Assembly (NCBI GenBank): GCA_037833965.1
Contig: AP031351.1
Location: forward strand, 1,934,501 to 1,998,500
DNA from: Marchantia polymorpha subsp. ruderalis
Lineage: Eukaryota > Streptophyta > Marchantiopsida > Marchantiales > Marchantiaceae
Direction: 5' to 3'
DNA: 64,000 nucleotides
Positions 1-56,266 of this stretch are shown piece by piece (positions within the stretch are counted from its first letter, which is position 1; every line of letters begins with the position of its first letter). The notes under the pieces are model-generated. The model searched no databases. It saw only the letters and a list, made by a program, of their open reading frames with translations, and was not told the origin of the DNA. The translations under genes were made by a program, and so were the position numbers.

Positions 1-900
1 CCAGACCTCGATCGAGTTGGACATATCGATTTGATGATTGCGGCATGGCCATGTCAGGGGCACACACGCGCTGGGCATGGAGCAGGGTTACATGACCCGA
101 GATCTCAGATGTTTTGGGAGATGCTACGAGTGTTACGTCATCTCCAGGAGCAGCAGACACGTTCTCCCGCATACATTCTAGAGAACGTACCATTGTTGGG
201 TGACACTCGGGCCCAGTTGATGGCGAGTGTCCATGAGGTCAGTGCATGGATTGGATCAGCAGTGTTGTTGGATGCTGCGAGGGTTGGTTCACGTGCTCAT
301 CGTGCACGTTTATGGTGGATCAACCTTGTACCACGAGAGATGTTGCGTCATGCGTATGATTCTGTGCATCATGATCCTACCCTCACCGTTGACAGGATCT
401 TGGATGTATCTCGATACTCTCAGGTGGTGAGAGTGGCGGATAGGTCATCCATGGCATTGGTGAACCACGTAGGTCAGCCTCGGATGGCTTTGCCTACGTT
501 GGTCAGTTATCCGGCATCACATGCATATCGTGATGGGGGACCTGGACTACTGTGGGACAGTACCCTACATCAGTTGGTGGAGCCCAACGCTGATGAGAGA
601 GAGCGTGCGATGGGGTTTCTTACAGGTGTGACCGCGGATTCTTCAGTTTCAGAGTCATCGCGTCGTCATGTTTTGGGTCAGGCTATGGACCTGAACTGCT
701 TGACGTGGATTATGAGCTTGGGTTTGGCCGAGCAACGCCGTTTGCGCGCAGATTTGGTAGTTGTTACACCACTTATTAGCTCATTGCCTACCGGGACGGT
801 AGTGGCAATGGCTGGGGGCGACTTGCAAGATATTTGTCATCCTTGGAGTTCATGGGACGTGACGAGAGGACTTGCGAGAGTAGACGCCCATGCAGTTTGA
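1..900 (+). pseudogene. Cytosine-5 DNA methyltransferase, C-terminal part (copy A)
   Basis: The frame is open from the first base and stops with TGA at 898-900. It begins just before catalytic motif IV, Pro-Cys-Gln with the catalytic Cys at 52-54, followed by motif VI Glu-Asn-Val at 181-189, an AHRAR-type motif VIII at 295-309, and a C-terminal Arg-Glu-Arg-x-Met-Gly...Gly-Gln-Ala motif IX-X region. The translation is identical to that of 8847-9746. The SAM-binding motif I lies outside the window or is absent, so this copy is partial as seen. Upstream sequence would show whether a second full gag-protease-methyltransferase unit precedes it. Confidence 0.85.
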
Positions 901-2995
901 GATGTTGGTCACGGGGAGGTTGCTACGAAGGAGGGTACGGAGAACCCTTCTTTGGAGGAGGTGTCATAGCAACCAGTGACAGTATCGCCTTCCTCTTGTG
1001 GGTCCATGGAGGAGGAGTGGGAGCCATCGATTGGTTCTCAGACCACCGGAGGAGAGAGGCGACGGTTGACACAATTCCTACGTGACTATATGAGTTGTTT
1101 GTGATAGTTGTGATACCTTTGTGTGTGGACACGCTCGTTCCTTGTGTATGTATGTGTGAGTTGTGAGTAGAGCATGTCAACAATGTATGATGTATGGCGA
1201 TACTGAGTCGCACGACAAACACGATATCACTCTTGTTTTTTTTTCATTGTCCGCTATCAAATTGATAAAATTTGTGCTTATCAAGATCAAAATAACAATG
1301 CAATGATTGATTATGATTCTATTGCTCATGTGCTACCACATGAACTTTTCAAGTTATATATAGCAGATTTTATAAGAAAGAATCTACAACATGTTTTTGA
1401 TTGAAACATTCCTATTCATAAGAGCAGATTGATTTTATAGATAATGAACGAAAAGTTGTAATCCAGTAGTTAAGTGCATTGTCAATTCACTTTCCAGCAG
1501 TTCAAGTTTCAAGTATGTTTGGTCTTCATTTGATGCTCAAGATCCAAATTTAATGGAATATTGTGGTGTAATTGCAATGTTTTTTCCTAAATTCAATGCG
1601 GAAGAGTATGACTTTTAAATTTTGTGTTGGAAAAAAGATGTGTTTCGCAAAAGATCATCAAACTTTGGATTAAAATGAGTCATGCAAGCATAATTATTTT
1701 TTTCATAGAACAATTTGAGCATCGATAAATGCTAAGTAAACAATTTGTATTGAAAATTGACTAAATTTTGTTTGGAGTGTACTAAATTAGCCTAAATTTA
1801 ATATTTTTTAGGATATATAAATTAAATTAAACTAAATTGATTTTTTCAGTAGACAAAATTAACCTAACCTAATTTTTGTTAGTAAACTATTGTAAACTAA
1901 ATTGAAATTTTGTAGAAGATTAAATTAACTTAAATTAATTTTATTGAGTAGAATAAATTAAACTAAATTGAGTTTTTGGAGGATATTAAATTGATCAAAA
2001 TTTTTTTTTTGAGTAAACTAAATTAAGCATATTTAGATATATTAATCAAATGATTATTATAACTATTCTTGATTATGAGTGATAACTCCTATGTTGTTTA
2101 AATTGCGAAAAAACATTATTCTTTACATTTTCAAGGTTGTGTTATTATCAGATATAATAACATACATTGATATGTTAGTAATCGACTAAATACATTATAT
2201 ATGTGTTATTGATTTAGATTGTATTAGATTAATGTTGTAACAATTATGATGTATATCTGGAGCATATGATTATTCATGCTCATGATATAATCAAGTTTCA
2301 GAAGATATTCGAATTGAGTAATTTGTGCAAAGTTGATTTTTTTATTCATCTTTATGTGAACTTAATGAAATAAAATTTTTTAAAATATCAATCTTTCATC
2401 ACATAGAGTTTATAAAGTAGACATCCTTTTATTATTGTTTACTATTTTAATTTTTGTATATGTAAAGAATAATCATATAAAATTTTCCGGAAGGGAAGGG
2501 CGCATCTTGTACCTAGGCTTGGCTACTCCGCAACTTAAGGCTTGTGGGGCCTCAATTCGAACCCCATGGTCCAAGGGACACGAGACTATACGATTCAGTG
2601 ATCTATAGAATGCGGGAAGACTATTATAACTGATTATAATAGGAAATGTATATATGATATAAATAAAAGAAATTATAATCGCAAAAGTGATTATATGGAT
2701 AACTGCATATATCTAGATATTTCATATTTAAATTTATGAAGATAATTTCTTGGACTCACAGTTGCATCTAGATAATTCTTATTCCACGAAATATATAAAG
2801 TTTGCATGATACTTTTCGTGTCACGTATTATTGCCATTGCTTTTATCCCGCTTTTTCTTGCTCGTATGTTATCATTTTCAAACTGAATTATCTCCTCTTC
2901 TTTACAAGCCAGATTATGGTGTTAGATTGATCTTTGGACCGGTGGTCGCTCTTTACAAAGTACTTCGAGATACAACATACCACTGAAGCTCATGC

Positions 2996-3069
2996 GTCCG
3001 CATCGTCCTTATAGAACATTACATTTTAGACTGTCCGCATCGTCCTTATAGAACATTACATTTTAGACT
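2996..3069. repeat. Perfect 37-bp tandem duplication (x2)
   Basis: Two adjacent identical 37-bp units, 2996-3032 and 3033-3069, containing the core CATCGTCCTTATAGAACATT. The same pair appears at 11842-11915, so the duplication predates the copying of the large block. Confidence 0.9.
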
Positions 3070-3109
3070 ATCCCCTTTTACGCTAAATGATGTTCTTTGC
3101 TCAAAGAAG

Positions 3110-3852
3110 TTTACCCAACGTGGTCCATTGGATCATTTGGTCGATAACATAGAGCAGCAACAATCATATGAAGACAGTAAGTTCACCATTCCTGTCAGCA
3201 GTGATACATGCCCATGCAGATGTTGAAGCATTTTGAGAACTACGACTACAGGGAATATGTGATCACAAAGGGCGCTTCTCTTTCCATAAGATTGCAATGT
3301 AGTAGTGGTGTAGTTCTCAACACGTTTTGCGAGGAGACTACTTAAAAATAAGATTAAAATCAACTTAAAATCACGGTATAAAATGGTGTGCTTGGCAATA
3401 TAAAAACTGTTGCTAGAAAACTACCTACATGGAAGAAGATTCGATCAGTTGCCCAAGTTTCCTACCAGCATCATCTTCCCGATACAGCAATCATATGGAG
3501 ACAGTAATGTCACCATCCCTGTCCGGAGTGATACATGCCCATGCAGATGGTGAAGCAATTTAAGAAGTATGACCACGGATTGTGTCATCACAAAGGGCAC
3601 CGCTCTTCCCGTAAGATTGCAGCGAAGGTGATGTCGTATACAACGCATTTCGCGTACAGACTACCTTTAAATAAGATCAAAATGAATTGAATTGAATTTA
3701 TAATCAGGATATCAAAACGTATGTTTAGCAAGAGGTAGAGCCGGTGCTAGTAAGGTACATACATGGAAGAGGTTTTCATCAGTTGCCCAAATTTCCTATC
3801 AGCATCATCTTCGAGACACAGCAACAGCAAGAACCAGAATGTGACTGATTCA
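3110..3852. repeat. Diverged 320-334 bp tandem repeats in the element tail
   Basis: Sub-units share AATCATATG(A/G)AGACAGTAA (near 3168 and 3489, 320 bp apart) and GGAAGA(A/G)G...CAGTTGCCCAA (near 3431 and 3765, 334 bp apart), giving two full units and a third partial one. Tandem sub-repeats are common in long LTRs. Short minus-strand frames inside them (3133-3363, 3445-3648) resemble each other only because the DNA is repeated. The same array sits at 11956-12698. Confidence 0.75.
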
Positions 3853-3971
3853 GTATATTTGCATTATACTCGGGTGATTGCAACACATCCTTCTAGTACA
3901 TGATTGGAAGCCAAGTGGAAAGCTGGATCGGAGTAGAATTATGACTGATGGTGTATGATATGTGCAATGGA

Positions 3972-4079
3972 ATGCGACTGCTAACAGCGGCTGTGACTGA
4001 GTTCGTGAACGGCCTCTCACCGGAACAGGTCGGATTCACAAAAGGAAAAACCGTGAATTCTGTTTCAGACTATCGATAA
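3972..4079 (+). pseudogene. LINE reverse transcriptase fragment
   Basis: A 35-codon frame contains LSPEQVGFTKGKTVNSV, which matches the conserved 'P-x-Q-x-G-F-x-x-G-(R/K)' block in the N-terminal part of non-LTR (LINE) reverse transcriptases. It ends in a stop, and the sequence on both sides is not open in this frame. It lies just after the first long repeat and upstream of gag. It is debris of an unrelated non-LTR element and does not supply the missing reverse transcriptase of the gag-methyltransferase unit. Confidence 0.55.
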
Positions 4080-4245
4080 GCGTATCACACAAATCTATAT
4101 TGGCACTTCACTCGGGTGTGTGAGATAATCATCGTGGTTATCCATAGACTCTGATCTTTACTCAAATTGAGTTGAGATGCTAAGTTGAGATGTTCGTGAT
4201 TTCATGGACATTATGTCTACTTGAGTGACCACCAAGTTCATGTTT

Positions 4246-4460
4246 TGAGGGCGGTCCACAAACAACGGTTGATCCGTTCATTGAAATCTTTCTGGACAAG
4301 ATAAGTAGACTTCTGTTAGAGGCCGAGCTGATCAACCATGGGTGACTTCAATGTGGACTTGGACTTAGCGGGTATTCAGTGCTGTATTATGGTGTGGGAC
4401 AACAGTCATCGTCGTCGGACTAATCTTGGGAATCTTGTACGGTCTCGTTGGTAAAGTCAA
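4246..4460 (+). pseudogene. Possible LINE endonuclease (EEP) fragment
   Basis: One frame reads FIEIFLDKISRLLLEAELIN and, after a frameshift near 4340, the next reads GDFNVDLDLAG. Together they resemble the stretch leading to the catalytic Gly-Asp-Phe-Asn motif of LINE endonuclease/exonuclease/phosphatase domains. The order here (reverse transcriptase fragment first, endonuclease second) is the reverse of an intact LINE, so the two fragments come from rearranged or separate insertions. Short and broken; moderate support only. Confidence 0.4.
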
Positions 4461-4586
4461 CTTCACCGTTCGAAGACTGAATTCCAACACTGTCGTTTTT
4501 ACAACCGACTTCAGTTAGCTGACAGCAACCAACTAGATGGTGCTCTGACAACCTTCGAGGTCATATTTGGTTGCGCTATTCATTGA

Positions 4587-4616
4587 AGCTATTAATACAG
4601 TACTGTATTAATAGCT
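4587..4616. repeat. Perfect 30-bp palindrome
   Basis: AGCTATTAATACAGT is followed directly by its reverse complement with no spacer. AT-rich and non-coding. One of several such palindromes in the window. Confidence 0.9.
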
Positions 4617-5770
4617 GTATTTACAGTACAGTATTTAACTACAATGCTTTATGGTTAGTTATAGTGGTAGAGAGTTTAATTAGCAATAGTAGCATCGTGG
4701 CTCTTTACAAACTGAAGTTGTAGGGAGGTTTGTGAAATAGTCAGACATAATTGTCTTTGATGAGCTGGCAAGTGGATGGATCGAACCGCCGGTCGAGCCC
4801 TCAGAGATCGGGAGTCAATGTGAGTTGACAAGAGAGACAAAAAGGAAGTAAGGAAGAAGAGAAAAATCTGGTGGTTTTATAATGCGTCTGTTTTTAGTAG
4901 GTTATTTTTTTAGGCCTTTGTGGGTAGTAGTGATAGAAGAAATCAATTTGCTACAGTGGGAGAGAAGTACAATTGTCATCGATATTATCATCCTTTGTAT
5001 ACGGAAGTTAGTAAGTGTGCACATGTTTGATCACTAAGAAGAAGGAAGAAGGAAGAAGAAGAAAAGAAGAAAAGAAAAAAAGAAAAAAGAAAAAATCGAA
5101 GAGAAAAGAGAGAAAAAAAAGAGAAAGTATTTTTCTGGAGAGATTGAGAATTGGCACTCGGTCTCATTTATTATGATTTTTCAGTTGTGAAAATAATGGT
5201 TTTATCATTATTACTTTTGTCTATGTGGAACAGTTAGGGTAGATAGGTTTTTCCTATTTGTTATATTCCTTGCCCCTGGTTGAAGCGTGAAGTGGAGGTA
5301 TGAGGTGAAGTACGGGACAGCTCTGTGTGGATATCATCTTTGCGACGGGATGAACGGGATGGCGTTGCAGGCGCTGGAGACGGAAGGTGGTAGGGGGCGA
5401 TGGAGTTCGACTCGGGGTCGCGATGCGAGGCGATGTCATGTGTGTTCTGCTGTTATGTGCTGTGTTTCATTTCGGCTGGAGAGTCGTTGCTAGCTGTTTG
5501 CTTGTGTTTGGATACTCTCCCGTCTGGCTTCTTGATGCGCGCCCATGTCTGGGTTGACGTTGATTTCCGGAGTAGTTTTACTCCAGTGTGCTGTCGATAG
5601 TGCGGCTGGATTTGATCACCGGCGCCTATCTTTGTTTCTCTCATGGTGAGATTGTAGTGATGACCAGTGGACCATGAGAGTCTCCTTGCGGTGATGACAG
5701 GTTAGATTGCCCATACCCATAGTCAGTAGGGCTAGAGCAGGTTAGTGCAGGGACGAGGGCAGGTGGAGTT

Positions 5771-7465
5771 GTGGCAGAGGTGCCGGTTGGTGAGTCAGTC
5801 ATCACGGAGGAGTTTGGTAGTTCCGTTGAGGACCGTGGAGGATTTACGCGGAGTGGGTTGAGGTATCGGCTACCTCATCCTAGCGCATCAGTGGTTGTAG
5901 AGGCGCGAGGTGTGGCAGATAGCGGATCTTTGGTGGTGATATCATCTAGGATCCCACACTCGTGGACTGGGAACATGGACGGTATGTACGGAGCCATGAA
6001 GGGACCACGGCGGTACTCTGGGGCAGTGGGCACCATTGAGTTGGATGATTTCATCCAGGAGTTTGACACGTGATGCGATATGCAGTTCTTGCGTAACCCC
6101 ACGTTGTTTACACCCTTCTTTGCATGGAAGGGGTTGTTTCAGCATCTAGAGGGGCCTCCCATGGATGACTACCATGAGTTTGGGAGAGAGTATGCTGTGG
6201 AGATTGACGCATGGAGGCGTCATTGGTCTCCAAACTATATGTCGATCACCCAGGGTGATGTTGGTACCAGTGTAGGTGCGAGTGGTAGCATCACCGATGG
6301 TACTAGTGGAGCAGGTACCACCGGCGGTGCTGTTGGCGTTGCCAGCACGAGTGGAGAGACTATTGGCGTACCTTTGTTCAGCCCCATTCCTGAGTTCTTC
6401 AAGAGGTTGAGGAAGAACTATCAGGGGGTGAGGACGGAGAAGTTGAGGAGTCTCTAGGAGTTGGAGCGGAAGACTGGTGAGAGTCTTCGGGAGGCATACA
6501 CGCGTATGCGGCGGTTGATCTCAATTACTCACGGTGTAACTTAGGCACAGGCGGTCCAGTATTTGTACAGGATACTGGACAGAGAGCTACGGCGGAGGGT
6601 TCGGGATGCTACTCTCTTGAGCGATGCGTCACCGACATTGGCCTATGTGTTTGCTCTTTCTGAGAAGATTGAGCTTAACATAGTGGAGGAGAGAGTGGTG
6701 ACTTCTTCATTCGCTAGAGACGCAGCCACTACCTCTCGGGTCCCGCAGAGCACGGCACCGTCTAGACCCTTTGATGGTGGTAGTGGTGGGGATCGCAGAG
6801 TGCAAACAAGACACCAGACGGCCGCTAGAGACACAGGGGCACGTGCACCAGTGCCGTCGTTTGCTGGCCAGCAGCAGGGACCAGCATGTTGGACATGTGG
6901 AGGGGATCATCTGCGGAGAGATTGTCCCCAGGAGGCCGGAGGTCGGAGTGCACAGGCCAGACCCCAGTCAGCACAGGTGGTGTGTGACCACTATGGTCGA
7001 GCAGGTCATACTCGAGATCGATGTTTTGATCTTCATCTAGAGTTGACAGGTGGTGGTAGAGGTCGTGGTGGTGATGCTTCTCGAGGCCGAGGTGGCCGTG
7101 CTGGTAGAGGTGGTCGAGGTGCCGGTGTAGTTGGACGTCCTGTAGCGAGTGCTACTTCATCCACAGAGAGCGCGATGGCTGCTCAGATTGAGCAGTTGGA
7201 GCAGAGGCTTGCTGCTATGGCGAGTTCTGGGGCGAGCACTTCCACTTCTTACGAGGAAGAGGATTTCCCTTATCTAGCGAGTGCAGCACAGGTGGAGGCA
7301 TTGGTTGTAATGACTAGAGGTGCAGCTCGAGCTCCAGAGCCACGCGGTGCGACAGGGGAGTTGGATCCTCAGAGGGGTGAGGGTGGGCGTCAGGCCAGAC
7401 TTCCCCAGTCGTTTTTTGTTGTCAGAGGTGGGCAGTACTTCATCCATGAGACCTGTACCACCTAG
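5771..7465 (+). pseudogene. gag: Retrotransposon gag-like polyprotein (three stops)
   Basis: A single frame of about 560 codons is interrupted by stops at 6071-6073 (TGA), 6455-6457 (TAG) and 6542-6544 (TAG). The middle part, with ELERKTGESLREAYTRMRRL and the downstream DRELRRRVRDA, has the pattern of the retrotransposon gag capsid domain. A perfect CCHC zinc knuckle follows (CWTCGGDHLRRDC, about 6887-6925), then a second knuckle with Tyr in place of its second Cys (CDHYGRAGHTRDRC), an Arg-Gly-rich stretch typical of nucleic-acid binding, and a short coiled coil (QIEQLEQRLAAM). No ATG start is assured: the frame is open upstream of 5771, where the first candidate start is GTG. In life, Gag would form the particle and bind RNA. 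Confidence 0.7.
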
Positions 7466-8231
7466 TGACCTTAGTGGGAGGACTGAGACATCTACGTCAC
7501 GTGGGGTGGACACGGACACACCATCTACTGCAGTGACGCGGATGGCTAGCTCATTGATGAGATTTCCACTATTTTCAGCTACAGAGGTGATAGATTCTGG
7601 GATCGACTTGGCTCGGGTTTTTTGTGCAGCAGCCACGTTGTGTGAACGTGAGAGTATCACTGCTACGAGTGCCGAGATAGGCGAGACTATTGATGAGGAG
7701 CTATCCTCTACGACTCCATCAGGCGATGAGTCGACATGGCAGGCGGCAGCGGCACGGATGGAGTCCTTGCCAGCCCGACCAGCCATTGATCGGGAGAGGA
7801 TTGTCTCTGGTGTGTGTATGATGGACAACCGGAGCGGTGTATTTCGCTTAGTGAGTGCTACAGGGCAGGTGTATGTCCCAGCCAGAGTGTTGCTGGATTC
7901 TGGTGCACAGCCTTTGATGTTGGGCAAGATTGCCTGCATTAGTTTGGAAGTTCGGAGGTCCGAGTTGGAGCCTTGTCCGTTCCAGATTCAAACATCACTC
8001 GGTGGCACCAGCGACAGGTCGTACAGGATGACCAGAGAGCGCATATCAATGCAGTTGAGGCATGGTCATGCTCAGGATAGCTCGCAGTTTGGAGTTCGAG
8101 CGGTGGTGACATCAGCAGAGTCATATGATGTGCTTGTTGGTGGAGCGGTGTTATACCCGATGGGATTTCGGATGGATTATTGAACGGAGACGGCAGCTTA
8201 TCGCCCTGGTTGGGAGTCCGGTGATGGACGT
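7466..8231 (+). pseudogene. Retropepsin-like aspartic protease region
   Basis: This frame is shifted +1 relative to gag; the overlap is about 7320-7465 and the likely shift site is a run of six T at 7412-7417. VPARVLLDSGAQPLMLGK (about 7880-7930) carries the catalytic Asp-Ser-Gly-Ala of retroviral-type proteases. YDVLVGGAVLYPMGF near the end fits the C-terminal 'DVLLG' strand. A stop at 8181-8183 (TGA, one transition from TGG) breaks the frame, which otherwise continues in phase into the methyltransferase. The expected role is polyprotein cleavage. Confidence 0.65.
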
Positions 8232-9746
8232 ATGAGTGAGCTGCATGTGAGGTTCATTTCTCGAGATCTTGGATCTTCTCCTTCAGTTTTAGCCTCTATT
8301 GCGGGTTTCAGTGGAGTGCTCACATGCCTTGATGACTTGTTGGAGGGGAACAGATCAGCCGAGGATACTCCAGTCTATGAGGAGGTGGAGGAGATGGTGA
8401 GTCTTGCAGCGGCAGTGTCATCATCTTTGGATGTTCCACTTTGGGATTCTTGCCACGCATTACAGCAGGAGGCTGATAGGTTGGTGAAGAAGGCTTGGAG
8501 TGAGGCCTCTTTACCAGCAGAGGCAGAGCGAGTCTTAGGTGGTCGGCTAGTATGTGGTCTTAGCACCCTATCACCATTAGTTACTACACCTATCGTATGG
8601 GAGTATTCCCCGGAGGGTGTTTGTTTGCTGGCCCTTTTTGGAGGGATCAGCACGGGTTTGGCTGAAGTGTTGTAGTCAGGTATTCTTGTACGTAGATACT
8701 TGTACGTGGAGAAGGACAAGACTGCACGTCGGGTTTCTTCACGACATGTTACACAGTTGATGCAGCGTTTTCCTTTGTTGTTGCCGCGATCAGCTGTTCG
8801 AGGATACCAGAAGGCGTTGCCTTCAGCCATTTCATTGCTAAGGGGGCCAGACCTCGATCGAGTTGGACATATCGATTTGATGATTGCGGCATGGCCATGT
8901 CAGGGGCACACACGCGCTGGGCATGGAGCAGGGTTACATGACCCGAGATCTCAGATGTTTTGGGAGATGCTACGAGTGTTACGTCATCTCCAGGAGCAGC
9001 AGACACGTTCTCCCGCATACATTCTAGAGAACGTACCATTGTTGGGTGACACTCGGGCCCAGTTGATGGCGAGTGTCCATGAGGTCAGTGCATGGATTGG
9101 ATCAGCAGTGTTGTTGGATGCTGCGAGGGTTGGTTCACGTGCTCATCGTGCACGTTTATGGTGGATCAACCTTGTACCACGAGAGATGTTGCGTCATGCG
9201 TATGATTCTGTGCATCATGATCCTACCCTCACCGTTGACAGGATCTTGGATGTATCTCGATACTCTCAGGTGGTGAGAGTGGCGGATAGGTCATCCATGG
9301 CATTGGTGAACCACGTAGGTCAGCCTCGGATGGCTTTGCCTACGTTGGTCAGTTATCCGGCATCACATGCATATCGTGATGGGGGACCTGGACTACTGTG
9401 GGACAGTACCCTACATCAGTTGGTGGAGCCCAACGCTGATGAGAGAGAGCGTGCGATGGGGTTTCTTACAGGTGTGACCGCGGATTCTTCAGTTTCAGAG
9501 TCATCGCGTCGTCATGTTTTGGGTCAGGCTATGGACCTGAACTGCTTGACGTGGATTATGAGCTTGGGTTTGGCCGAGCAACGCCGTTTGCGCGCAGATT
9601 TGGTAGTTGTTACACCACTTATTAGCTCATTGCCTACCGGGACGGTAGTGGCAATGGCTGGGGGCGACTTGCAAGATATTTGTCATCCTTGGAGTTCATG
9701 GGACGTGACGAGAGGACTTGCGAGAGTAGACGCCCATGCAGTTTGA
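8232..9746 (+). pseudogene. Retroelement-borne cytosine-5 DNA methyltransferase (DNMT3/DRM-like)
   Basis: An in-frame reading of about 505 codons is broken by one TAG at 8673-8675. The order matches a C5-methyltransferase domain: SAM-binding motif I LFGGISTGLAEVL (about 8634-8672), the following acidic 'RRYLYVEKD' motif II, motif IV IDLMIAAWPCQGHTRAG with the catalytic Cys at 8898-8900, motif VI YILENV (9027-9035), motif VIII AHRARLWW (9141-9161), and terminal motifs IX-X (ERERAMGF...VLGQA). The unpermuted order, the form of motif I and the AHRAR motif favour DNMT3/DRM-like over DNMT1/CMT-like enzymes. An approximately 130-residue unrecognised stretch joins it to the protease. All listed catalytic motifs are present, so the stop at motif I is the only obvious defect in this domain. 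It could methylate DNA if read through or repaired. The target is unknown. Confidence 0.85.
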
Positions 9747-12700
9747 GATGTTGGTCACGGGGAGGTTGCTACGAAGGAGGGTACGGAGAACCCTTCTTTG
9801 GAGGAGGTGTCATAGCAACCAGTGACAGTATCGCCTTCCTCTTGTGGGTCCATGGAGGAGGAGTGGGAGCCATCGATTGGTTCTCAGACCACCGGAGGAG
9901 AGAGGCGACGGTTGACACAATTCCTACGTGACTATATGAGTTGTTTGTGATAGTTGTGATACCTTTGTGTGTGGACACGCTCGTTCCTTGTGTATGTATG
10001 TGTGAGTTGTGAGTAGAGCATGTCAACAATGTATGATGTATGGCGATACTGAGTCGCACGACAAACACGATATCACTCTTGTTTTTTTTTCATTGTCCGC
10101 TATCAAATTGATAAAATTTGTGCTTATCAAGATCAAAATAACAATGCAATGATTGATTATGATTCTATTGCTCATGTGCTACCACATGAACTTTTCAAGT
10201 TATATATAGCAGATTTTATAAGAAAGAATCTACAACATGTTTTTGATTGAAACATTCCTATTCATAAGAGCAGATTGATTTTATAGATAATGAACGAAAA
10301 GTTGTAATCCAGTAGTTAAGTGCATTGTCAATTCACTTTCCAGCAGTTCAAGTTTCAAGTATGTTTGGTCTTCATTTGATGCTCAAGATCCAAATTTAAT
10401 GGAATATTGTGGTGTAATTGCAATGTTTTTTCCTAAATTCAATGCGGAAGAGTATGACTTTTAAATTTTGTGTTGGAAAAAAGATGTGTTTCGCAAAAGA
10501 TCATCAAACTTTGGATTAAAATGAGTCATGCAAGCATAATTATTTTTTTCATAGAACAATTTGAGCATCGATAAATGCTAAGTAAACAATTTGTATTGAA
10601 AATTGACTAAATTTTGTTTGGAGTGTACTAAATTAGCCTAAATTTAATATTTTTTAGGATATATAAATTAAATTAAACTAAATTGATTTTTTCAGTAGAC
10701 AAAATTAACCTAACCTAATTTTTGTTAGTAAACTATTGTAAACTAAATTGAAATTTTGTAGAAGATTAAATTAACTTAAATTAATTTTATTGAGTAGAAT
10801 AAATTAAACTAAATTGAGTTTTTGGAGGATATTAAATTGATCAAAATTTTTTTTTTGAGTAAACTAAATTAAGCATATTTAGATATATTAATCAAATGAT
10901 TATTATAACTATTCTTGATTATGAGTGATAACTCCTATGTTGTTTAAATTGCGAAAAAACATTATTCTTTACATTTTCAAGGTTGTGTTATTATCAGATA
11001 TAATAACATACATTGATATGTTAGTAATCGACTAAATACATTATATATGTGTTATTGATTTAGATTGTATTAGATTAATGTTGTAACAATTATGATGTAT
11101 ATCTGGAGCATATGATTATTCATGCTCATGATATAATCAAGTTTCAGAAGATATTCGAATTGAGTAATTTGTGCAAAGTTGATTTTTTTATTCATCTTTA
11201 TGTGAACTTAATGAAATAAAATTTTTTAAAATATCAATCTTTCATCACATAGAGTTTATAAAGTAGACATCCTTTTATTATTGTTTACTATTTTAATTTT
11301 TGTATATGTAAAGAATAATCATATAAAATTTTCCGGAAGGGAAGGGCGCATCTTGTACCTAGGCTTGGCTACTCCGCAACTTAAGGCTTGTGGGGCCTCA
11401 ATTCGAACCCCATGGTCCAAGGGACACGAGACTATACGATTCAGTGATCTATAGAATGCGGGAAGACTATTATAACTGATTATAATAGGAAATGTATATA
11501 TGATATAAATAAAAGAAATTATAATCGCAAAAGTGATTATATGGATAACTGCATATATCTAGATATTTCATATTTAAATTTATGAAGATAATTTCTTGGA
11601 CTCACAGTTGCATCTAGATAATTCTTATTCCACGAAATATATAAAGTTTGCATGATACTTTTCGTGTCACGTATTATTGCCATTGCTTTTATCCCGCTTT
11701 TTCTTGCTCGTATGTTATCATTTTCAAACTGAATTATCTCCTCTTCTTTACAAGCCAGATTATGGTGTTAGATTGATCTTTGGACCGGTGGTCGCTCTTT
11801 ACAAAGTACTTCGAGATACAACATACCACTGAAGCTCATGCGTCCGCATCGTCCTTATAGAACATTACATTTTAGACTGTCCGCATCGTCCTTATAGAAC
11901 ATTACATTTTAGACTATCCCCTTTTACGCTAAATGATGTTCTTTGCTCAAAGAAGTTTACCCAACGTGGTCCATTGGATCATTTGGTCGATAACATAGAG
12001 CAGCAACAATCATATGAAGACAGTAAGTTCACCATTCCTGTCAGCAGTGATACATGCCCATGCAGATGTTGAAGCATTTTGAGAACTACGACTACAGGGA
12101 ATATGTGATCACAAAGGGCGCTTCTCTTTCCATAAGATTGCAATGTAGTAGTGGTGTAGTTCTCAACACGTTTTGCGAGGAGACTACTTAAAAATAAGAT
12201 TAAAATCAACTTAAAATCACGGTATAAAATGGTGTGCTTGGCAATATAAAAACTGTTGCTAGAAAACTACCTACATGGAAGAAGATTCGATCAGTTGCCC
12301 AAGTTTCCTACCAGCATCATCTTCCCGATACAGCAATCATATGGAGACAGTAATGTCACCATCCCTGTCCGGAGTGATACATGCCCATGCAGATGGTGAA
12401 GCAATTTAAGAAGTATGACCACGGATTGTGTCATCACAAAGGGCACCGCTCTTCCCGTAAGATTGCAGCGAAGGTGATGTCGTATACAACGCATTTCGCG
12501 TACAGACTACCTTTAAATAAGATCAAAATGAATTGAATTGAATTTATAATCAGGATATCAAAACGTATGTTTAGCAAGAGGTAGAGCCGGTGCTAGTAAG
12601 GTACATACATGGAAGAGGTTTTCATCAGTTGCCCAAATTTCCTATCAGCATCATCTTCGAGACACAGCAACAGCAAGAACCAGAATGTGACTGATTCAGT
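8847..12700 (+). repeat. Long direct repeat, copy B
   Basis: Second copy of the block at 1-3854. Here its left part is continuous with the upstream gag-protease-methyltransferase frame, so this copy shows the full context. It ends 110 bp before the stop codon of the convergently oriented ENT gene, so the ENT 3' UTR probably runs into it. The apparent identity of the copies implies a recent duplication or insertion, gene conversion, or an assembly artefact. Confidence 0.95.
9747..12700. other. Non-coding tail of the repeat, copy B
   Basis: Same content as 901-3854: an AT-rich stretch, the tRNA-like patch (about 11346-11431), the 37-bp tandem pair (11842-11915) and the 320-334 bp sub-repeats (about 11956-12698). 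A terminator or polyadenylation region for the retroelement would be expected here; none was identified. Confidence 0.6.
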
Positions 12701-12810: not shown

Positions 12811-14879
12811 CTAGACAATCCACACAAAGCTAACCACGGATCCAATGGCCAGTCCTGTAATAAGAGCGATAGTCATAACCATCCCTGCCGTCTCTGCTGC
12901 AGCGTATGGGACTGCTTTAGGGGCGACGATGAGAAGACAAGACGAGAAGTAACCATTTGTCAGTCCGAACAGAGAGGTCAGCGTGAACACGGGTATCTCC
13001 GTGCGGAAGGACTTGGGTCCATGCAGGCACACATAATACAATGGGAAGAAGATCAACCTCCCGAATGTTCCGCCGACGATGGACGTGTTCGAGTCCAGAA
13101 TGTACACAGCCGTGGCACTTTTGCCCACGAGGTCGAATACATTAAACGCACCAATGAGCAAAATTGGGTACCAATCTCCCAAGGCGAGTGAGTGCACATC
13201 TTCGGCTAAAAATCCCGGGAAGATGGAGAGCGTTACGACGTACATGAGCACCATCGCAGTAACAAGCCAGCGAATGTGTGAGAGCACAAACAAGGCGGTG
13301 TCGTTGTTCAGGCCGAAGGTTACTGCTGAAGATGGTTTGGGCAGCAGTGCCCTAGCTTCCTCGGGAGCCAAGTCGGACTTCGAGTGCACTTCGAACGCAA
13401 AGGTCTGGTCTGCCATTGCCGCAATTTTCACGTTCCGGTAGTAAATCAAGATGGGCAATTTGTGGGCTAAGTTGTAGGCTACTATGCAGAAGGCAAGGAA
13501 GCACCCGCTGACGACGAAGTAGAGATTGGCACTCATTCTCAGCCCATCTATTGTTGCTGGAAAGGCCGCCTTCGTCACGATCCGCAGTGCAGAAACCAGG
13601 ACACCTGTGACATCACGAATGCACATTTGGTCTGCTTCAGAGCGAGTTGACCTCACGATGTGAACATAAACGAAGCCAGGAGATGAATGAGGATAACGCC
13701 CTCTTCATTCCTTCAGATGAAATAAACAAGAGCGTGCGGACTTTGATTGGTGAAAGCTGAATAAAATATGAAAGTGAGAATTGTTATGGGTTGTAATGAT
13801 ATCGAAAGTTCAGACAGAACACGCGTGAGGGCCAGTGACGAAATAAGGGAGAGCGGGAGAGAAACATTTACCAGTGTCTAATTTCTGATACAATTCGACA
13901 TCATTTTCTTAACGGACAGATAATGACTGACGCAAACGAAACTGTCAGCACTGATGTGTTCAAAACGGGAAACAATTATCGAAAATGTTGACTGGTTAAA
14001 AAGGAATCAAACCGCACAGTGGTCAAAATTGAGCTACAAACGCCTTGTCCTAGAGTGCACTAAGTCGCAACCAGGAACTCAGAACATGATGAGACGATGA
14101 ATAATATACAACAGCCCTTTGGTGGCTCACAATCCTTTCTGAAGTAAAGGAAGTGAACTCTTGGGAAGATTTGGGGAGAAGGCATTCGGTCAGGAGAACA
14201 AAGGGAAAAGGGAATCACAAAGATTGAAAAAATGAAGACTGCAGAGGCTTGACGTTAGAGAACCATGCTTTGAAACACGGGGCAAGAGATGCACGCATAT
14301 GAACAGCTTGGAATCAATCAAAAGGGCGTTAGAGAGAATCGAAATAAACGGGCAGAGGACACAAAGTTTACTGCAAGCTGCCGTTCCGGCAACAAAAGCT
14401 TGCATGTACCGCTCTGGCAGTTCACCCGCTGCTCCTATGACGCTTCCTTGTACTAAAGCATCAGCCACTCCTGTCAATGCAAGCGACGCTACTGTCGCGT
14501 AATGTGTGAACGTGCTACCAGCGTCCTTGATGAAAAGGGTATCCATTAAAGGTACAAGTACCACCGCAAGCAAGTAAAGAGCAAGGCCGCCATTCACCCG
14601 AAACGAGGTTGTGTAATGTTGGCCGTTCAGAGTTAGATACAGCAGCACGATGAGGCAGGGAAACATGTAAACGACGGCAAACACCCTGTCGATGTGAGTT
14701 CCAGGATAGAGGTAATCGAAATAGTCCACGGCTGAAATGTACGCGTTCCATGGCAATAATACGGCTGCTCCCAGGGAGAAAAACACGAGGTAAGCCAAAT
14801 TTCCGACATCGGCTGGAGGAGTCTCGCCGTTCAGAGGAACGCTTTCCAAACTTTGCGAGGCTTTAGTCACCCAACCCAT
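12811..14879 (-). CDS. Equilibrative nucleoside transporter (ENT family)
   Basis: Two exons, 14372-14879 and 12811-13604, joined across a 767-bp intron in consistent phase, give 433 residues, the usual plant ENT length. ENT proteins move nucleosides, in plants often with protons, across the plasma membrane or tonoplast through 11 helices. The hallmarks are PWNAYISAVDYF at residues 43-54 in helix 1 and FGLTNGYFSSCLLIVAPKAV near the C terminus. A long hydrophilic loop containing EEARALLPKPSS separates helices 6 and 7. The start is the ATG at 14879, since the upstream in-frame codon is only TTG. The gene converges on the retroelement: its stop is 110 bp from the end of the long repeat, so its 3' UTR probably overlaps transposon sequence. 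Confidence 0.95.
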
Positions 14880-14899
14880 CTTCGCTACCTCTCGATTCA

Positions 14900-17800
14900 A
14901 AATTCCCTACGCCCTATGGGCTTCTTAGTACTTGTCGGCCAAGATCCCGCTAGATCAACACCTTGTTCCTGTGGCACTGAGTATCATCGATCTTTGCTCT
15001 TCGCCTTTGACAGCGCAATCGACATCAGAGCGTGAAAACCTCAACAACTGAGTGTCAAAACACTGCCCTCGAAATCCGCGGCGTGATGGTTTTCATCAGC
15101 GAGTCACGCAGAACATGTTAATCAGGCCGTCATTCTCACGGGGATAACAATGATGTCAAGCCGGCTTGGGGAAACGATTCGGAGGAAGGCTGCTCAGAGG
15201 AGGGCTTTGTCGTCAGAAAAGGCAAACGAATGTCTTTGTTAAAACCCCAGGAAACACTCAGCGGACCTTCCAGCTGTTCCGAAGAGCCGTCAATAATTCT
15301 CTGCACTCCAAGAAAACAGTGAACAATTGCCGCAAACTGACATTCCGACGTTGGCTCTTGGAGTGACAGTCTACGGACTTCATGTGCTCGACAATAGAGA
15401 CGCAACTGCTCCTAGGACCGACCCTGCCCGATCTTCCCAGCCAATGGTGTGCAACCGCATCGCCGTAAAGAACAATTAAGCGACTGAAGAAAGTGGGCCA
15501 ATCGGTACGAGCAGATCGCAATGTTTTGTCCTAAGCTAATAAGTACAGTACTGAACACCCACTTGCTCGAGTTCCATCATCCGAATCTAGTCCCTAATTA
15601 AGAACCCCTGCATAGATAGATAGCCCATCTCCACTGGCCAGCGTTCCTCGAGGACTAGAGTCATGTCCTCCAATTTCCCTGCTTGCTTCCAAAAGTCCCC
15701 TCTGGACCACACTCTCCTTTCACCACGATTCTCCGCCTCGCTACAACAAGTGCCACGCCAATTTCACCGAATCCACCGCCAGTCAGGTCCTCTAATTTCC
15801 CTCTTTCTTCCGAAAGCCCCCTCCTTTCACCGCCATCCTGCACCCCACCCCGCCACAAGCAATGCTACACCAATTTCACCGAGTCCACCACCACCGCGTC
15901 GTGAATTCGGGATCGCCTGCATCATTTCCCTGCCTCCAAATTTCCATTAAGAGCGCAGTGGCAGGACACACGATTCATTGTGTGGTCGGTGGCCTCTAGA
16001 TTCCCACTGGGTCCCCAGATCCGGGAGGGGCAGGAGAGCAGCAGAATCTTGTCGGCTGACCTGCGGCCACGCTCCCACGCGAGGGCTCGAGCTCGTCGTC
16101 TTACGGGGAAGACGTTGAGCACGAAGCAAACCCAAATGCCAATCGTTAAATCGTTCGGAGAGAGTTAAATCCCCCAACGGGTGGACTAAAGAATCCCCAC
16201 GACGATGAACAAACTTTACAAAATAATACAATCGCAATGGTAGATAATCTTTCACCCACCTCGACATATCACAATTATTTTGCGAATTACCTACATGATA
16301 TCTAAAATACAATGGAACAGTGCAACTTACACAAGTTGGTGTGGTAAATCTCACATGCTCTTTCATGAACATATAAATCTATCTTGGCATGATTCAACAA
16401 TGGAAAGATATGATAATAACTTTGCTTATATAGATCTTGGCTATTACTATGCTCATTGTATATAAATAATTTGGATATTTTAATATTCTAATAATGTGTC
16501 ATGTCTATGATTTATAATCATCATCTTTGAACAATAACTTGGAAACGCTTTAAAAAAGAAAAAATCCACACATATTATAAACCATTGAAATTTATATCGA
16601 CACTCATAATCTACTTGCATGTTAACTATACCCATCCAGAACGTAATTGCAAACACCACATCACATGCATATAGATATCTAATGACATGAATAGCTAAAC
16701 TATATAATTCAAATAAAATCATGTGAATATTTGTCAAGAAAGTACTCTGATAGTCAATTGAGTTTTTTTTTTAATGTTTCATCATGTGACAATCACATAT
16801 GTCAACTATCAGAACATTCGCTACCAATTTTTTCAATTCATCGCCTAATTTTTATGTTACATGAACATGCTCTTTCTTTTTAAACAATGTGTCTTCTAGA
16901 CGACCTAATTATTCTTATGGTCTCTGGTATATTATTGAGTTGAAACTTGACTTGGAAGTAAGTCACCGAAGTAATATTTGTCTGCATTAAAACATGATCA
17001 AATTTGAGGTAGACTGTCATTTCTTTCATTGGTAGCAAGCCAACTCGGTTGAACGTCAAGGAGATTGAAGAGTTCATAAGGGATTCGTCTATCATATTTG
17101 CTAACATTCCTTGTAAGTTTGGTATGTTCTTATAAATCATCAATTAGCAAGTAGGAGAAGAGATGGATGTATTTGTTTGTCCTCGATCTCCTTGAGCTTC
17201 AGAGCAAAACATCATATTTCATGGTTTGTAAATCCCAAGCTGTGTATGTTACTTTGAATCTTTTGACCAATTTATTCGCTACAATGATGAAAATCCACAT
17301 ATAATCAGAAAGATTGGATTTTAACACAATATAAGTTCTCTTGAAATATAAATAAAGCACTATTTATCTGGTTTCCAACAAGACTGTTAAATTTAGTCCT
17401 TGAACTGTTGTCATCAGAATGGTTGGAAAGCACTAAGGTATACAAGGTGTTGGTTACCATACAATATATCTCTCCTTGTCTTGAGTTTTTACAAACTGAT
17501 ATAAGGTGTTGGCCTTATGTGTATGATTCTTAGCTTGAAAATCTGGTACATTGATGCTTAGATAAAAGAGTGACAAAAATATTTTAGTGACCACAAGCCA
17601 GTTAATTAGTTTTCCCAATCATGCTCAGGTGCCACGTGTATTTCATTTTCTCTCCCAATTGCATATTATAACACAAACACCTTCGCCACAAACAAACTAC
17701 TGCCGAAATAAACCTTTCCGTAATATCGCCCTAGCTAAAACCCGTGTATCAAATCTCATGATATATGCATTTTCCAAGGAATGTTCAGAGCCGCTGGTAT

Positions 17801-33411: not shown

Positions 33412-34146
33412 CAGAGTTAAACCTCCCAATAGTGACATATATTGGTACTTAGGTTTTCCGTCACTATTGCGAGTTGTCACTCACAAGAGTAAAGTTCGTA
33501 TAACCTCCTAATAGTAACATACATTGGTGTTAACATTAGATATCATTGTTGAGAGGTGCATAATTTTAATATAACCTCCTAATAGTAACATACATAGGTT
33601 TTGGTGTTAGATGTCACTATTGGGAGATGTCAATTATATAAAAAAAAGTTCATAGATTTTTTATCGTGCAGTGCATCAACCCTAAGACTTTATATAAATG
33701 TGTTGTTTGGTTTCAAAATGGCCTTCATTTGCACATCTGTATTCTTAACATGGACATTATAATTATATTTAAATTTAGATTAATACACACAAATCTGAGT
33801 GAAACAATTAATGATAATATGTGTAGCAAATTAGGGATTTAGGGTTAAACCCTAAACCCTTACTTAAATCCAGAAAATGTGAATTGTTGAGATATAACTT
33901 TAAATATACTTATGCCATATTTTTTTAGTCTCATAACTATGTATTGTGATAATGATAGGAATTTTTACTCTGAAATTACATTTGAAATTGTCACTATTGT
34001 ATAGTATCATGTCACTAATGGGAATAGTGACGTACCGTTCTTATTGAGCAGATTTACAAGTTAGAAACTAATGGATCTGGGATTTTACGTCACTAACGAG
34101 AGGATGTCACTCATAAGAGGTGACACTATTGGGAGGTTTAACTCTG
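33412..34146 (+). mobile_element. 735-bp TA-flanked MITE, copy 1
   Basis: Terminal inverted repeats begin CAGAGTTAAACCTCCCAATA and are perfect for more than 20 bp, flanked by TA on both sides, as expected for Tc1/mariner-type insertion. There is no transposase frame, so it is non-autonomous. Near the left end, the AACCTCC(C/T)AATAGT(G/A)ACATA motif recurs three times. The middle holds an inverted telomere-like motif (TTTAGGGTTAAACCCTAAA, about 33840-33860). A second copy of the same length lies at 47915-48649 in the opposite orientation. The intact ends suggest this is the younger or better preserved copy. Confidence 0.85.
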
Positions 34147-36714: not shown

Positions 36715-38251
36715 TCAATTTGAGCCTGGGATGTTGCCCGTCTTGGTCGGGTACAAGGCGGCCATTGCAATGCCACACATTCCCTCAGGTGCCTGGACGT
36801 TGCGCTGCAATCGAATGTAGCCACTTTCACCCCAGCTCTCCCCCCATGAGTTCTTCACGAGCCAGTACTCTTGCCCTTGGTCCGTTCCGTAGCCCACAAC
36901 GAGAACACCGTGGTCTAGTTCTGTGCCACAGGTGGTGTTGTAGATTCCCTGCATATACACAATTTTGCGATGTGTTATTTGTCTAGAAACTTGGCTGTGA
37001 GTTAGAAGTCTGGCTGCACAACGCCGCTGGAAAGTAGATGAGAACGAGAGGCTTTGACAGGTTTCATCGGGTTGAGGATGTTACGCTTTCGTATAGTAGA
37101 AAATCCTCGGAGCTTGCATGAATGGACACGCTGACGGGTTGATGTGCCACTGCCTTTTGTAGGTCTTTCTCGCTGTTGATTGTTACCTGCTCGTAAGCAT
37201 TTATTGATGCAGCAACTCTCGTCTCCTTCACAATAGAGAAAAGCCGATTGGCACGTATTAGATACATGTTATCTGTCACTCCAGGGAGCCTTCAAAATTC
37301 GACAAAAGTTTGTGAACGATGGCTGCAAGGCACTTGTGCATGATGAATGTCAGAATGAGCTCGAGGGTGCACCTTGTGACTGTTGCAGAAGTCCTCGGCA
37401 GCAATGTAAGGGTAGTCCATATCAGTATCCACACCTCCATTTTGCACTATATACTCAAACCCGTAGTCCATGAAACCTCCTGCGCAGCCATAAGTATTCA
37501 AAGTGACATCACAGTCCACCAGTTCTTGTTCTGAGAGAGAAATCAGATTGCCTGTTTTGATCTGGTTCAAGCTTTCGACAGCTCCGATGGTCGAGAACGC
37601 CCAGCAGCTCCCTGCAAAACAGGATCCGTGGTCAATTCATCTCTCGACGCAAGACTAGAAACCGGCCCAGGACCTCCGATCGAGGAATAATCTGGTAGAA
37701 CGAACAGTTTCATGTCACTTTCAAACCATTAGCAAATCATGGCCCAAACAGGCAGCCACAGAAGTCGAACGAGAGTGCGTGCAGATCTTACCACATTGAC
37801 CTTGGGATTTAACACCTGTTACTGCTCCTTCCTTCCTCCAATCTACCTCCGTAGGCAAAGAGTCTACATGTCCATACGTGAAGGTCGGTGCCTGACTAGT
37901 TCTCACATTTTGTCGAAATTTGTTCTTTAGATAAATCGACCTGAACTCGTCTGGAGTAAGATCGGCGAATGTCGTCAATCCCAGTTTGTACGACGAAGGC
38001 TGGCTGTTATGCTCATCAATGCGCCTCAGATTCGCTTTGAAAATTGAGAACCGGGTACTCATCTCGGCGGACTGAGTGTAGGTCTTGGACTGTTTGAGCA
38101 TCCAATCGTCGAACATAATGCGTATGGATTTCTCAGAGCGAGCTTCCTCGACTTCTTCCGCTTCAGTGAGCTGTCGACTGGCAGCTACACGATTGAAGCT
38201 TCTGGAGAGAATCACGAGCAAAAACACGGACGGCAGAACGCTTCGTGCCAT
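36715..38251 (-). CDS. Papain-family (C1A) cysteine protease precursor
   Basis: Four exons (37792-38251, 37373-37611, 37085-37225, 36715-36948) join in phase to 357 residues. A hydrophobic signal peptide covers about residues 1-25. The I29 prodomain carries a perfect ERFNIN pattern (Glu63, Arg67, Phe71, Asn74, Ile78, Asn82). The mature enzyme probably starts near residue 131 (LPTEVDWR). Active-site residues are Gln150, Cys156 in QCGSCWAFS, His293 in [11 protein letters not shown] and Asn313 in KNSWG. The GCAGG and CGTELDHG sequences give the usual disulfide Cys. There is no C-terminal granulin domain and no ER-retention signal, so it resembles SAG12- or short RD21-type vacuolar or secreted proteases. 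The start is the ATG at 38251. Confidence 0.95.

Positions 38252-56195: not shown

Positions 56196-56266
<71 letters not shown>

What the first reader, a model, noticed from the sequence alone, without database searches (positions are those of the whole stretch)
5771..9746. A cytosine DNA methyltransferase fused into a gag-protease retroelement in a land plant
Seen: gag with CCHC knuckles, a retropepsin motif and a full-order C5-methyltransferase domain (motifs I, II, IV, VI, VIII, IX-X) run in one direction, with protease and methyltransferase in the same frame. Established: retrotransposon capture of DNA methyltransferases has been reported from charophyte algae and dinoflagellates. Inference: this is a land-plant member of such an element, perhaps able to set or copy methylation on its own DNA, to hide from or to manage host silencing. 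I am not aware of one described in this setting.
Basis: partly seen in the sequence, partly recalled or inferred. Interest (0 to 1): 0.92.

Follow-up and report, generated by a model that had tools for sequence, protein, structure and literature searches.

The report
Liverwort retrotransposons carrying a DNA methyltransferase
The stretch is a broken copy of a jumping gene, abundant in this liverwort and also seen in other liverworts, peat moss and green algae, that carries its own DNA-methylating enzyme of the kind hosts use to silence such elements, so a model land plant could be used to ask why a parasite carries its host's weapon.

Summary
In detail: gag (CCHC), retropepsin and a DNMT3-type cytosine methyltransferase (MTase) lie in order at 5723-9746. 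This copy is dead (six in-frame stops, a frame change, most of ORF2 deleted) and is the right half of a recent 8.8-kb tandem duplication; the element's 5' end lies just upstream of the window. It is not a one-off chimera. The same genome (241 Mb, 9 contigs, Marchantia-like) holds 213 sites with the exact end motif, and 24 of 123 scored MTase matches lie in open frames of 1351-1365 aa.

Copies with an open ORF1 read gag-PR-MTase, then UAG in the leaky UAG-CARYYA context (11 of 11), then RT-RNaseH-integrase-PHD finger. They have DIRS-like split repeats (A-ORFs-B-A-B) but 4-bp target duplications (13 of 15 exact). The MTase is under purifying selection (omega 0.13), folds like DNMT3, and forms one clade with MTases of Calypogeia and chlorophyte elements, outside host DNMT3/DRM.

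The closest known element is KnitGypsy-Dnmt3 of the alga Klebsormidium. New here: land-plant hosts, MTase on the Gag side of a leaky stop, the PHD reader, and evidence on integration. Activity and purpose are untested. New variant of a known kind.

The parts
3855..12700 (.). right-hand unit of an 8846-bp tandem duplication; the left unit runs from upstream of the window to 3854
   Evidence: 1-3854 = 8847-12700 at 100%; L009 5014-10000 = window 3860-8846 at 99.92%
1..1217 (+). left duplicate copy: C-terminal part of the MTase, start of ORF2, B repeat; its A repeat lies upstream of the window at G000 C2:1928539
3855..5722 (+). 5' leader of the element (3' part only in this duplicate); homology to copy K begins at 5265, the rest is copy-specific
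5723..7465 (+). gag remnant with two CCHC-type knuckles (second one damaged); stops at 6071, 6455, 6542
7314..8183 (+). retropepsin-like protease region, motif LLDSGAQ at 7890-7910; stop at 8181
8184..9746 (+). linker and DNMT3-like C5 methyltransferase, motifs I-X in conventional order; stops at 8673 and 9744
9813..9821 (+). UAG-CAA-CCA, the leaky-stop context between ORF1 and ORF2
9816..9946 (+). first ~44 codons of ORF2; the rest (RT, RNase H, integrase, PHD) is deleted in this copy
9952..10063 (+). B repeat (3' end of the element, ends CACGACA)
10064..10067 (+). 4-bp target duplication AACA (3' side; the 5' side AACA precedes the A repeat at L009 4039)

Best explanation
It is a decayed, tandemly duplicated copy of a land-plant Ty3/Gypsy-type retrotransposon that encodes a DNMT3-like cytosine methyltransferase. 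SHOWN by sequence: relatives in the same genome encode gag-protease-MTase in one frame, then UAG in the CARYYA readthrough context, then RT-RNase H-DDE integrase-PHD finger. They are bounded by split repeats A1-ORFs-B1-A2-B2 (or A-ORFs-B) and 4-bp target duplications. The MTase keeps its catalytic motifs under purifying selection. INFERRED: leaky termination makes MTase at Gag-like abundance and RT/integrase as a minority product, so MTase is carried in the Gag particle. There it meets the new cDNA and methylates it, probably at CG as shown for the Symbiodinium DIRS enzymes. cDNA is carried as a permuted or circular form whose B|A junction (CACGACA-NN-TGTCATG) is cut by the DDE integrase after CA and inserted with a 4-bp stagger. 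The PHD finger may steer integration to a histone mark. What methylation buys the element (passing as self, protection of the cDNA, controlled dormancy in chromatin) is open; I rate marking the cDNA before integration as most likely.
For: MTase family, gag/protease/RT linkage and copy number. Domain order (Pfam PHD checked in copy B). UAG-CARYYA in 11 of 11 copies (motif described in PMC5382211, passages). Copy B ORF2 best solved-structure match Ty3 Gag-Pol, E 3.6e-88. 4-bp target duplications exact in 13 of 15 elements examined. Split repeats. dN/dS between two subfamilies, MTase 0.128, PR 0.169, gag 0.185. AlphaFold model of relative P0002, pLDDT 85; all 50 listed Foldseek PDB matches are DNMT3A, 3B or 3C structures or their complexes. 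Retro-DNMT activity precedent: section 10 of PMC5890265.
Against: No activity, expression or methylation data were available here. In the published yeast test the nearest known enzyme, KnitGypsy-Dnmt3, showed no activity (called inconclusive by its authors). The MTase sits in different polyprotein places in different lineages, so a fixed position in the particle is not essential. C-to-T excess in the dead copy is modest (61 of 123 private changes; CG 14/414, CHG 14/408, CHH 33/1541), so methylation of the element is not proven by its decay. Whether the clade is nested in DNMT3 is unresolved.
Confidence: 0.75

Rival explanations
1. One-off chimera: a degraded gag-protease element fused by chance to a host DRM/DNMT3 retrocopy.
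For: The window copy alone has no RT, integrase or second repeat, and the MTase is closest in kind to DNMT3.
Against: 213 sites with the exact PPT-B end motif; 24 of 123 scored PF00145 matches in 1351-1365-aa open frames; PR-MTase or gag-PR-MTase in Marchantia, Calypogeia and Sphagnum proteins; element MTases form one clade apart from host DNMT3a and DRMa.
Confidence: 0.01
2. The MTase is kept for RNA or nucleic-acid binding, or for methylating its own RNA, not for DNA methylation.
For: de Mendoza et al. raise RNA methylation for the LINE enzyme and got no DNA methylation from KnitGypsy-Dnmt3.
Against: Motifs I, IV, VI and VIII are intact in the 10 full ORF1 copies checked; fold and sequence nearest DNMT3A/3B rather than DNMT2; two SymbioDIRS enzymes, also Dnmt3-type, methylate CG in yeast.
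Confidence: 0.15
3. The MTase acts in trans on the host genome (raising silencing so that the element limits its own damage), rather than on its own cDNA.
For: de Mendoza et al. discuss lowered transposition as a benefit. The MTase stands on the Gag side of a leaky stop, so more of it than of RT is expected.
Against: No nuclear-localisation test; young insertions (A1 = A2 in 6 of 15) suggest that transposition is not shut down.
Confidence: 0.2
4. The A-ORFs-B form (no second A-B) is a deletion product of B1 x B2 recombination rather than a second kind of insertion, and the split repeats need no circular intermediate.
For: B1 and B2 are near-identical direct repeats ~415 bp apart; recombination would leave the same ends and target duplication.
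Against: The form is common: 39 of 93 PPT-B sites on C1-C4 lack an exact B|A junction downstream (mutated junctions count as missing). It carries exact target duplications in the three checked (#12, copy A, window); in #12 the 3' GCTG could also be a remnant of the junction.
Confidence: 0.45

Closest known systems
KnitGypsy-Dnmt3, Klebsormidium nitens (de Mendoza et al. 2018, PMC5890265; abstract, sections 6, 9, 10, 11 and passages read; figures and supplements not seen)
   Same: Gypsy domain composition, Dnmt3-related MTase with unrearranged motifs, DIRS-like arrangement of repeats, purifying selection on the MTase, intronless and multi-copy
   Different: Land-plant (liverwort/moss) hosts; MTase in ORF1 with Gag-PR upstream of a UAG-CARYYA stop, whereas the paper places it in the Pol polyprotein ORF; C-terminal PHD finger (the word PHD does not occur in the paper's main text); 4-bp target duplications documented here
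Chlorophyte DNMT-Gypsy-PHD polyproteins (Haematococcus lacustris, Monoraphidium neglectum, Chromochloris zofingiensis by its locus tag as recalled, metagenomes; database proteins)
   Same: Same MTase clade, Gypsy RT-RNaseH-integrase, PHD finger at the C-terminus
   Different: MTase between RNase H and integrase in one long ORF (Pfam order in P0145, P0146, P0154; by eye in P0205, P0251, P0260); their MTases form a separate sub-clade (97.9/99)
SymbioDIRS-Dnmt3, Symbiodinium (same paper)
   Same: Dnmt3-type MTase inside a retrotransposon; A-coding-B-A-B repeats; shown to methylate CG in yeast
   Different: Tyrosine recombinase and DIRS-type element instead of Ty3-like RT and DDE integrase
Host DNMT3-like and DRM-like loci of the same genome (L001, L071; L002, L070)
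   Same: Same superfamily, PCQ/PCN and ENV motifs
   Different: DNMT3-like L001 reads as split by an intron (inferred); DRM-like L002 and L070 have the rearranged motif order; L001 and L002 fall outside the element clade

Membership tests
Ty3/Gypsy LTR retrotransposons | order protease-RT-RNase H-integrase with DDE (rve) integrase | tested here: met
   best PDB match of copy B ORF2 is Ty3 Gag-Pol. RT/IN are deleted in the window copy itself
Ty3/Gypsy LTR retrotransposons | complete LTR at both ends of the insertion | tested here: not met
   split repeats A1-ORFs-B1-A2-B2 or A-ORFs-B
Ty3/Gypsy LTR retrotransposons | short fixed-length target duplication made by a DDE integrase | tested here: met
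   4 bp, exact in 13 of 15; one with 1 mismatch (#10), one not testable (#11)
Ty3/Gypsy LTR retrotransposons | tRNA primer-binding site (TGG...) after the 5' repeat | tested here: inconclusive
   no TGG start seen after A by eye; a 12-13-nt complement to a hairpin arm inside A in 9 of 13 scored copies suggests self-priming; host tRNAs were not compared
DIRS-like elements | tyrosine recombinase, no target duplication | tested here: not met
   rve/H2C2 integrase and 4-bp duplications
DIRS-like elements | split direct repeats A-ORFs-B-A-B | tested here: met
KnitGypsy-Dnmt3-type elements | DNMT3-related, unrearranged MTase inside a Gypsy polyprotein with DIRS-like repeats | tested here: met
KnitGypsy-Dnmt3-type elements | MTase monophyletic with the K. 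nitens element enzymes | not tested
   no row named Klebsormidium was among those listed
DNMT3 family | closest sequence and fold match DNMT3A/3B, motifs I-X in conventional order | tested here: met
   PDB E 6e-12 against M.HaeIII 3.5e-4; all 50 listed Foldseek matches are DNMT3; order
DNMT3 family | nested inside eukaryotic DNMT3 in a rooted tree | tested here: inconclusive
   element clade separate from references 99.9/100; position relative to DNMT3 and Dcm weakly supported 62/72
DRM | rearranged motif order (VI-X before I-IV) | tested here: not met

The most novel reading that the evidence does not exclude
A retrotransposon lineage of the green plants that carries both a writer (DNMT3-type MTase, delivered with Gag) and a reader (PHD finger on the integrase). 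It integrates circular, pre-methylated cDNA through a Ty3-type DDE integrase cutting a palindromic B|A repeat junction, combining DIRS-style circular replication with retroviral-style integration, and it marks its DNA before insertion.
Probability: 0.35. Interest if true: 0.85.

Novelty: new variant of a known kind. Interest (0 to 1): 0.74.

Why it matters
Retrotransposons that carry the enzyme class used to silence them are a standing puzzle, known in print (as far as my searches reach) from one charophyte and dinoflagellates. Relatives of this element sit in Marchantia polymorpha, a genetically tractable land plant with published methylomes. So the question whether a retro-borne DNMT marks its own cDNA can be asked directly. 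The many MTase-encoding element copies may also be mistaken for host DNMT genes in bryophyte gene counts, and DIRS-like repeats with a DDE integrase point to an unusual replication cycle.

Tried and rejected
LTR reading of the 3.85-kb direct repeat inside the window: rejected; it is part of an 8846-bp tandem duplication that includes host flank. One-off chimera: rejected. Captured host gene in the leader: leaders are copy-specific mosaics; K's recurs in other places at 99% and in fragments; where the pieces come from was not worked out. Adaptor contamination of the nucleoside-transporter exon: none of the four adaptor strings tried is in the window. Single against double capture of the MTase: the RT tree had only two non-MTase Gypsy rows, both from this host, and cannot decide. 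tRNA scan of the window: none, with bacterial settings. Paper searches pairing PHD, DIRS and Gypsy gave 13 papers, of which I saw passages of one, and 0 papers; no such element was described in what I saw.
Full report
WHAT IS THERE. In the window, frame 5723-7465 is a gag remnant and frame 7314-9746 holds a retropepsin motif followed by a C5 methyltransferase with motifs in conventional order (motif names recalled). Pfam DNA_methylase matches 8676-9746 at E 2.3e-9; gag and protease pieces have no match over a cut-off. Their identity rests on motifs and relatives: the related metagenome protein P0142 matches Asp_protease_2 at 2.2e-5 just upstream of its MTase. The copy is dead: stops at 6071, 6455, 6542, 8181, 8673 and 9744, a frame change between gag and PR, a damaged second knuckle, and a deletion that removes ORF2 from about codon 44 to the B repeat.

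DUPLICATION. Window 1-3854 equals 8847-12700 at 100%, and window 3860-8846 equals the preceding contig at 99.92%. So the element sits in an 8846-bp tandem duplication that also copied host flank. The original left copy has its A repeat at G000 C2:1928539 (L009 4039), preceded by AACA. The B repeat ends at window 1217 (left) and 10063 (right), both followed by AACA. The window's right-hand copy therefore lacks its own A repeat. Such high identity means a very recent duplication or an assembly duplication; I cannot tell which.

THE GENOME. The window is C2:1934501-1998500 of a 241-Mb, nine-contig genome. The best element relative is from Marchantia polymorpha (94% over the MTase region, P0122). 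I infer a Marchantia-type liverwort; the species was not determined and no host gene was searched against named proteins. PF00145 gave 123 scored matches of 290 first-look candidates; 24 of the 123 lie in open frames of 1351-1365 aa, of which I read ten in full and one in part. Four of the 123 are host loci by reading: DNMT3-like L001 and L071, DRM-like L002 and L070; I did not check each of the others. The exact PPT-B end motif occurs 213 times (reversed-pattern control 0) and the B|A junction 220 times (control 2).

ANATOMY. Copies A, B, C, E, H (type 1) and K, M, N, O, P, Q (K-type, to which the window belongs; copy K is 95% identical to it) were read. ORF1 is gag-PR-MTase. The next codon is TAG in 11 of 11, and the following six bases fit CARYYA in 11 of 11 (CAACCA in ten, CAACTA in K). 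This is the type I leaky stop of tobamoviruses (PMC5382211, passages seen). In copy B, ORF2 carries RVT_1, RNase H, H2C2, rve and a PHD finger (E 2.2e-11); other copies show the same C-terminal ORF end by eye. ORF2 is open end to end in 6 of the 11; the other five are damaged. Copy B ORF2's best solved-structure match is Ty3 Gag-Pol, E 3.6e-88. Among the 10 copies with ORF1 in one stretch, motifs I, IV, VI, VIII and the protease motif are intact in 10, both knuckles in 9 (P lacks one), and LGQAMDLN is exact in 9 (not N).

ENDS AND INTEGRATION. Elements begin TGTCATG and end CACGACA. Many read A1(~293)-ORFs-AGGGGGGCG-B1(~119)-GC-A2-B2. Of 13 elements examined, eleven have exact 4-bp target duplications, #10 has one mismatch, and #11 was not testable because my code ran into A2. 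Copy A (TCTT) and the window element (AACA) add two exact ones: 13 of 15 in all. Copy A, #12 and the window element end after one B; in #12 the duplicated GCTG equals the first four bases of the junction, so it is the weakest of the three. On contigs C1-C4, 54 of 93 PPT-B sites have the exact B|A junction 105-130 bp on and 39 do not (mutated junctions count as missing). Both forms can be had from a circle with one or two repeats opened at the B|A junction; B1 x B2 recombination is the rival for the shorter form. Because the junction is near-palindromic with a 2-nt spacer after CA on either strand, it suits retroviral-type 3' processing; this is inference. A1 and A2 are identical in 6 of 15 elements; eight differ by 1-6 substitutions and one (O) by 17 gapped bases. 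So some insertions are young.

A POSSIBLE SELF-PRIMER. Just after A lies ACTCGAAGAACT(G), complementary over 12-13 nt to a hairpin arm inside A in 9 of 13 scored copies (shuffled maxima 10-11). Of the other four, O has 11 (shuffled maximum 12), C 7, the window copy 6, and #3 a different 24-nt match; seven sequences were too short to score. No TGG start of a tRNA site is seen there by eye. This recalls self-priming elements; untested.

THE MTASE. Against solved structures, relative P0002 scores DNMT3A 6e-12, DNMT3B 1.4e-9, a plant 'DNA methyltransferase' 4onj (a DRM as recalled) 1.2e-8, DRM2 1.6e-4, M.HaeIII 3.5e-4. Its AlphaFold model (pLDDT 85, 23 sequences) has DNMT3A, 3B or 3C structures or complexes in all 50 listed Foldseek rows. 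I built a tree of 27 element MTases (hand-picked from 161 near-full domains of 277 proteins) with host DNMT3a, host DRMa, DNMT3A/3B segments and E. coli Dcm. The element enzymes form one clade (99.9/100). They split into a group with the gag-PR-MTase elements (96.6/97) and a group with the RT-RNaseH-MTase elements (97.9/99). Domain order was checked for only part of the rows, the window copy itself was not a row, and no named Sphagnum row was included. Whether the clade is nested in DNMT3 is unresolved (62/72). Between five type 1 and five K-type copies, NG86 omega is 0.128 for the MTase, 0.169 for PR and 0.185 for gag. These copies were chosen for long ORFs, which favours low dN on terminal branches, but mean dS between the types is 0.30-0.59, so most of the constraint is older.

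DISTRIBUTION. (42 of 42 rows) adds Sphagnum fallax (P0143). (120 of 232 rows listed) names Monoraphidium and Haematococcus, and a Chrzof locus tag (Chromochloris, recalled). The order there is RT-RNaseH-MTase-integrase-PHD by Pfam in three metagenome proteins (P0145, P0146, P0154) and by eye in P0205 (RNase H on), P0251 and P0260. No vascular plant is named in the rows seen. Length limits, shared-word limits and unnamed rows mean absence is not shown.

WHAT IS KNOWN. de Mendoza et al. 2018 (PMC5890265; abstract, sections 6, 9, 10, 11 and passages; figures and supplements not seen) describe KnitGypsy-Dnmt3 with Dnmt3 in the Pol ORF of a Gypsy element and DIRS-like repeats, and show CG methylation in yeast by SymbioDIRS enzymes but none by KnitGypsy. 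A 2025 DNMT survey (PMC12344493, passages) repeats streptophytes and dinoflagellates and names LTR Copia and DIRS. Marchantia papers (PMC5784723, PMC9516144, passages) speak of host enzymes only in the passages seen. Passages of PMC6453930, PMC10538959 and PMC12633428 add nothing on this. Ginger transposons show that a PHD finger occurs next to a Gypsy-type integrase elsewhere (PMC2836005, passages). Eight searches of open-licence PMC on this question (one search was on the stop motif) turned up no description of a land-plant DNMT-bearing retrotransposon in the listings and passages I saw; subscription papers and supplements were not covered. UniRef already labels some of these proteins DNA (cytosine-5-)-methyltransferase.

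MECHANISM, WITH WHAT IS SHOWN AND WHAT IS NOT. Shown by sequence: architecture, leaky-stop context, integration signature, conservation. Inferred: Gag-level dose of MTase, packaging, methylation of cDNA before integration, PHD steering, circular intermediate. The decayed window copy has 123 private changes against 24-59 in five K-type copies with open ORF1, 61 of them C>T or G>A, spread over CG (14/414), CHG (14/408) and CHH (33/1541). The open copies show a like share of such changes (20 of 59 to 29 of 48). That fits methylated copies but does not prove it; CpG o/e is 0.72-0.74 in the elements and 0.79 in window 20000-50000.

VERDICT. Observation confirmed; interpretation supported; new variant of a known kind. 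The strongest new points are land-plant hosts with many open copies, MTase on the Gag side of a conserved leaky stop, writer plus reader in one element, and DIRS-like repeats with DDE-type target duplications.

Noticed in passing
window 3855-12700 and upstream: 8846-bp tandem duplication at 99.9-100% identity carrying the element and host flank; recent event or assembly duplication.
   Followed up: partly
leaders of copies in L010-L020, L048-L060; L009 4270-6400: The 1.5-2.5 kb between A1 and the conserved leader near gag is non-homologous between many copies and mosaic; K's leader recurs at 99% in three other places and in fragments elsewhere.
   Followed up: partly
L014 292-620, L020, L051: Hairpin in the A repeat whose arm is complementary to the sequence just after A: a possible self-primer.
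   Followed up: partly
P0077 (Mp_7g09570): Annotated Marchantia 'PHD-type' gene model that reads as a fragmentary element: PR, partial MTase, integrase, PHD; such models may inflate host gene counts.
   Followed up: no
L001, L071 against PMC5784723: Two DNMT3-like host loci in this genome, while the Marchantia paper's list of five enzymes (passage) names MET, CMT and DRM only.
   Followed up: no
P0046, P0163, P0271: Element proteins filed under bacterial MAG names (Obscuribacterales, Spirochaetia, Minisyncoccia), probably eukaryotic contigs in bins.
   Followed up: no
window 33412-34152 and 47909-48649: 740-bp inverted repeat pair at 90% identity.
   Followed up: no
window 12811-14906 minus; 37721-38311 minus; 55130-58735 minus: Host genes: nucleoside transporter (Pfam E 5.5e-48 for 12811-13704); by eye a papain-like protease and a receptor-like kinase with a USP-like part.
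   Followed up: no
P0145; PF01585 also listed for P0178, P0200, P0212, P0223, P0229, P0237: P0145 carries a G-patch domain between MTase and integrase; six other algal-type polyproteins list the domain (positions not checked).
   Followed up: no
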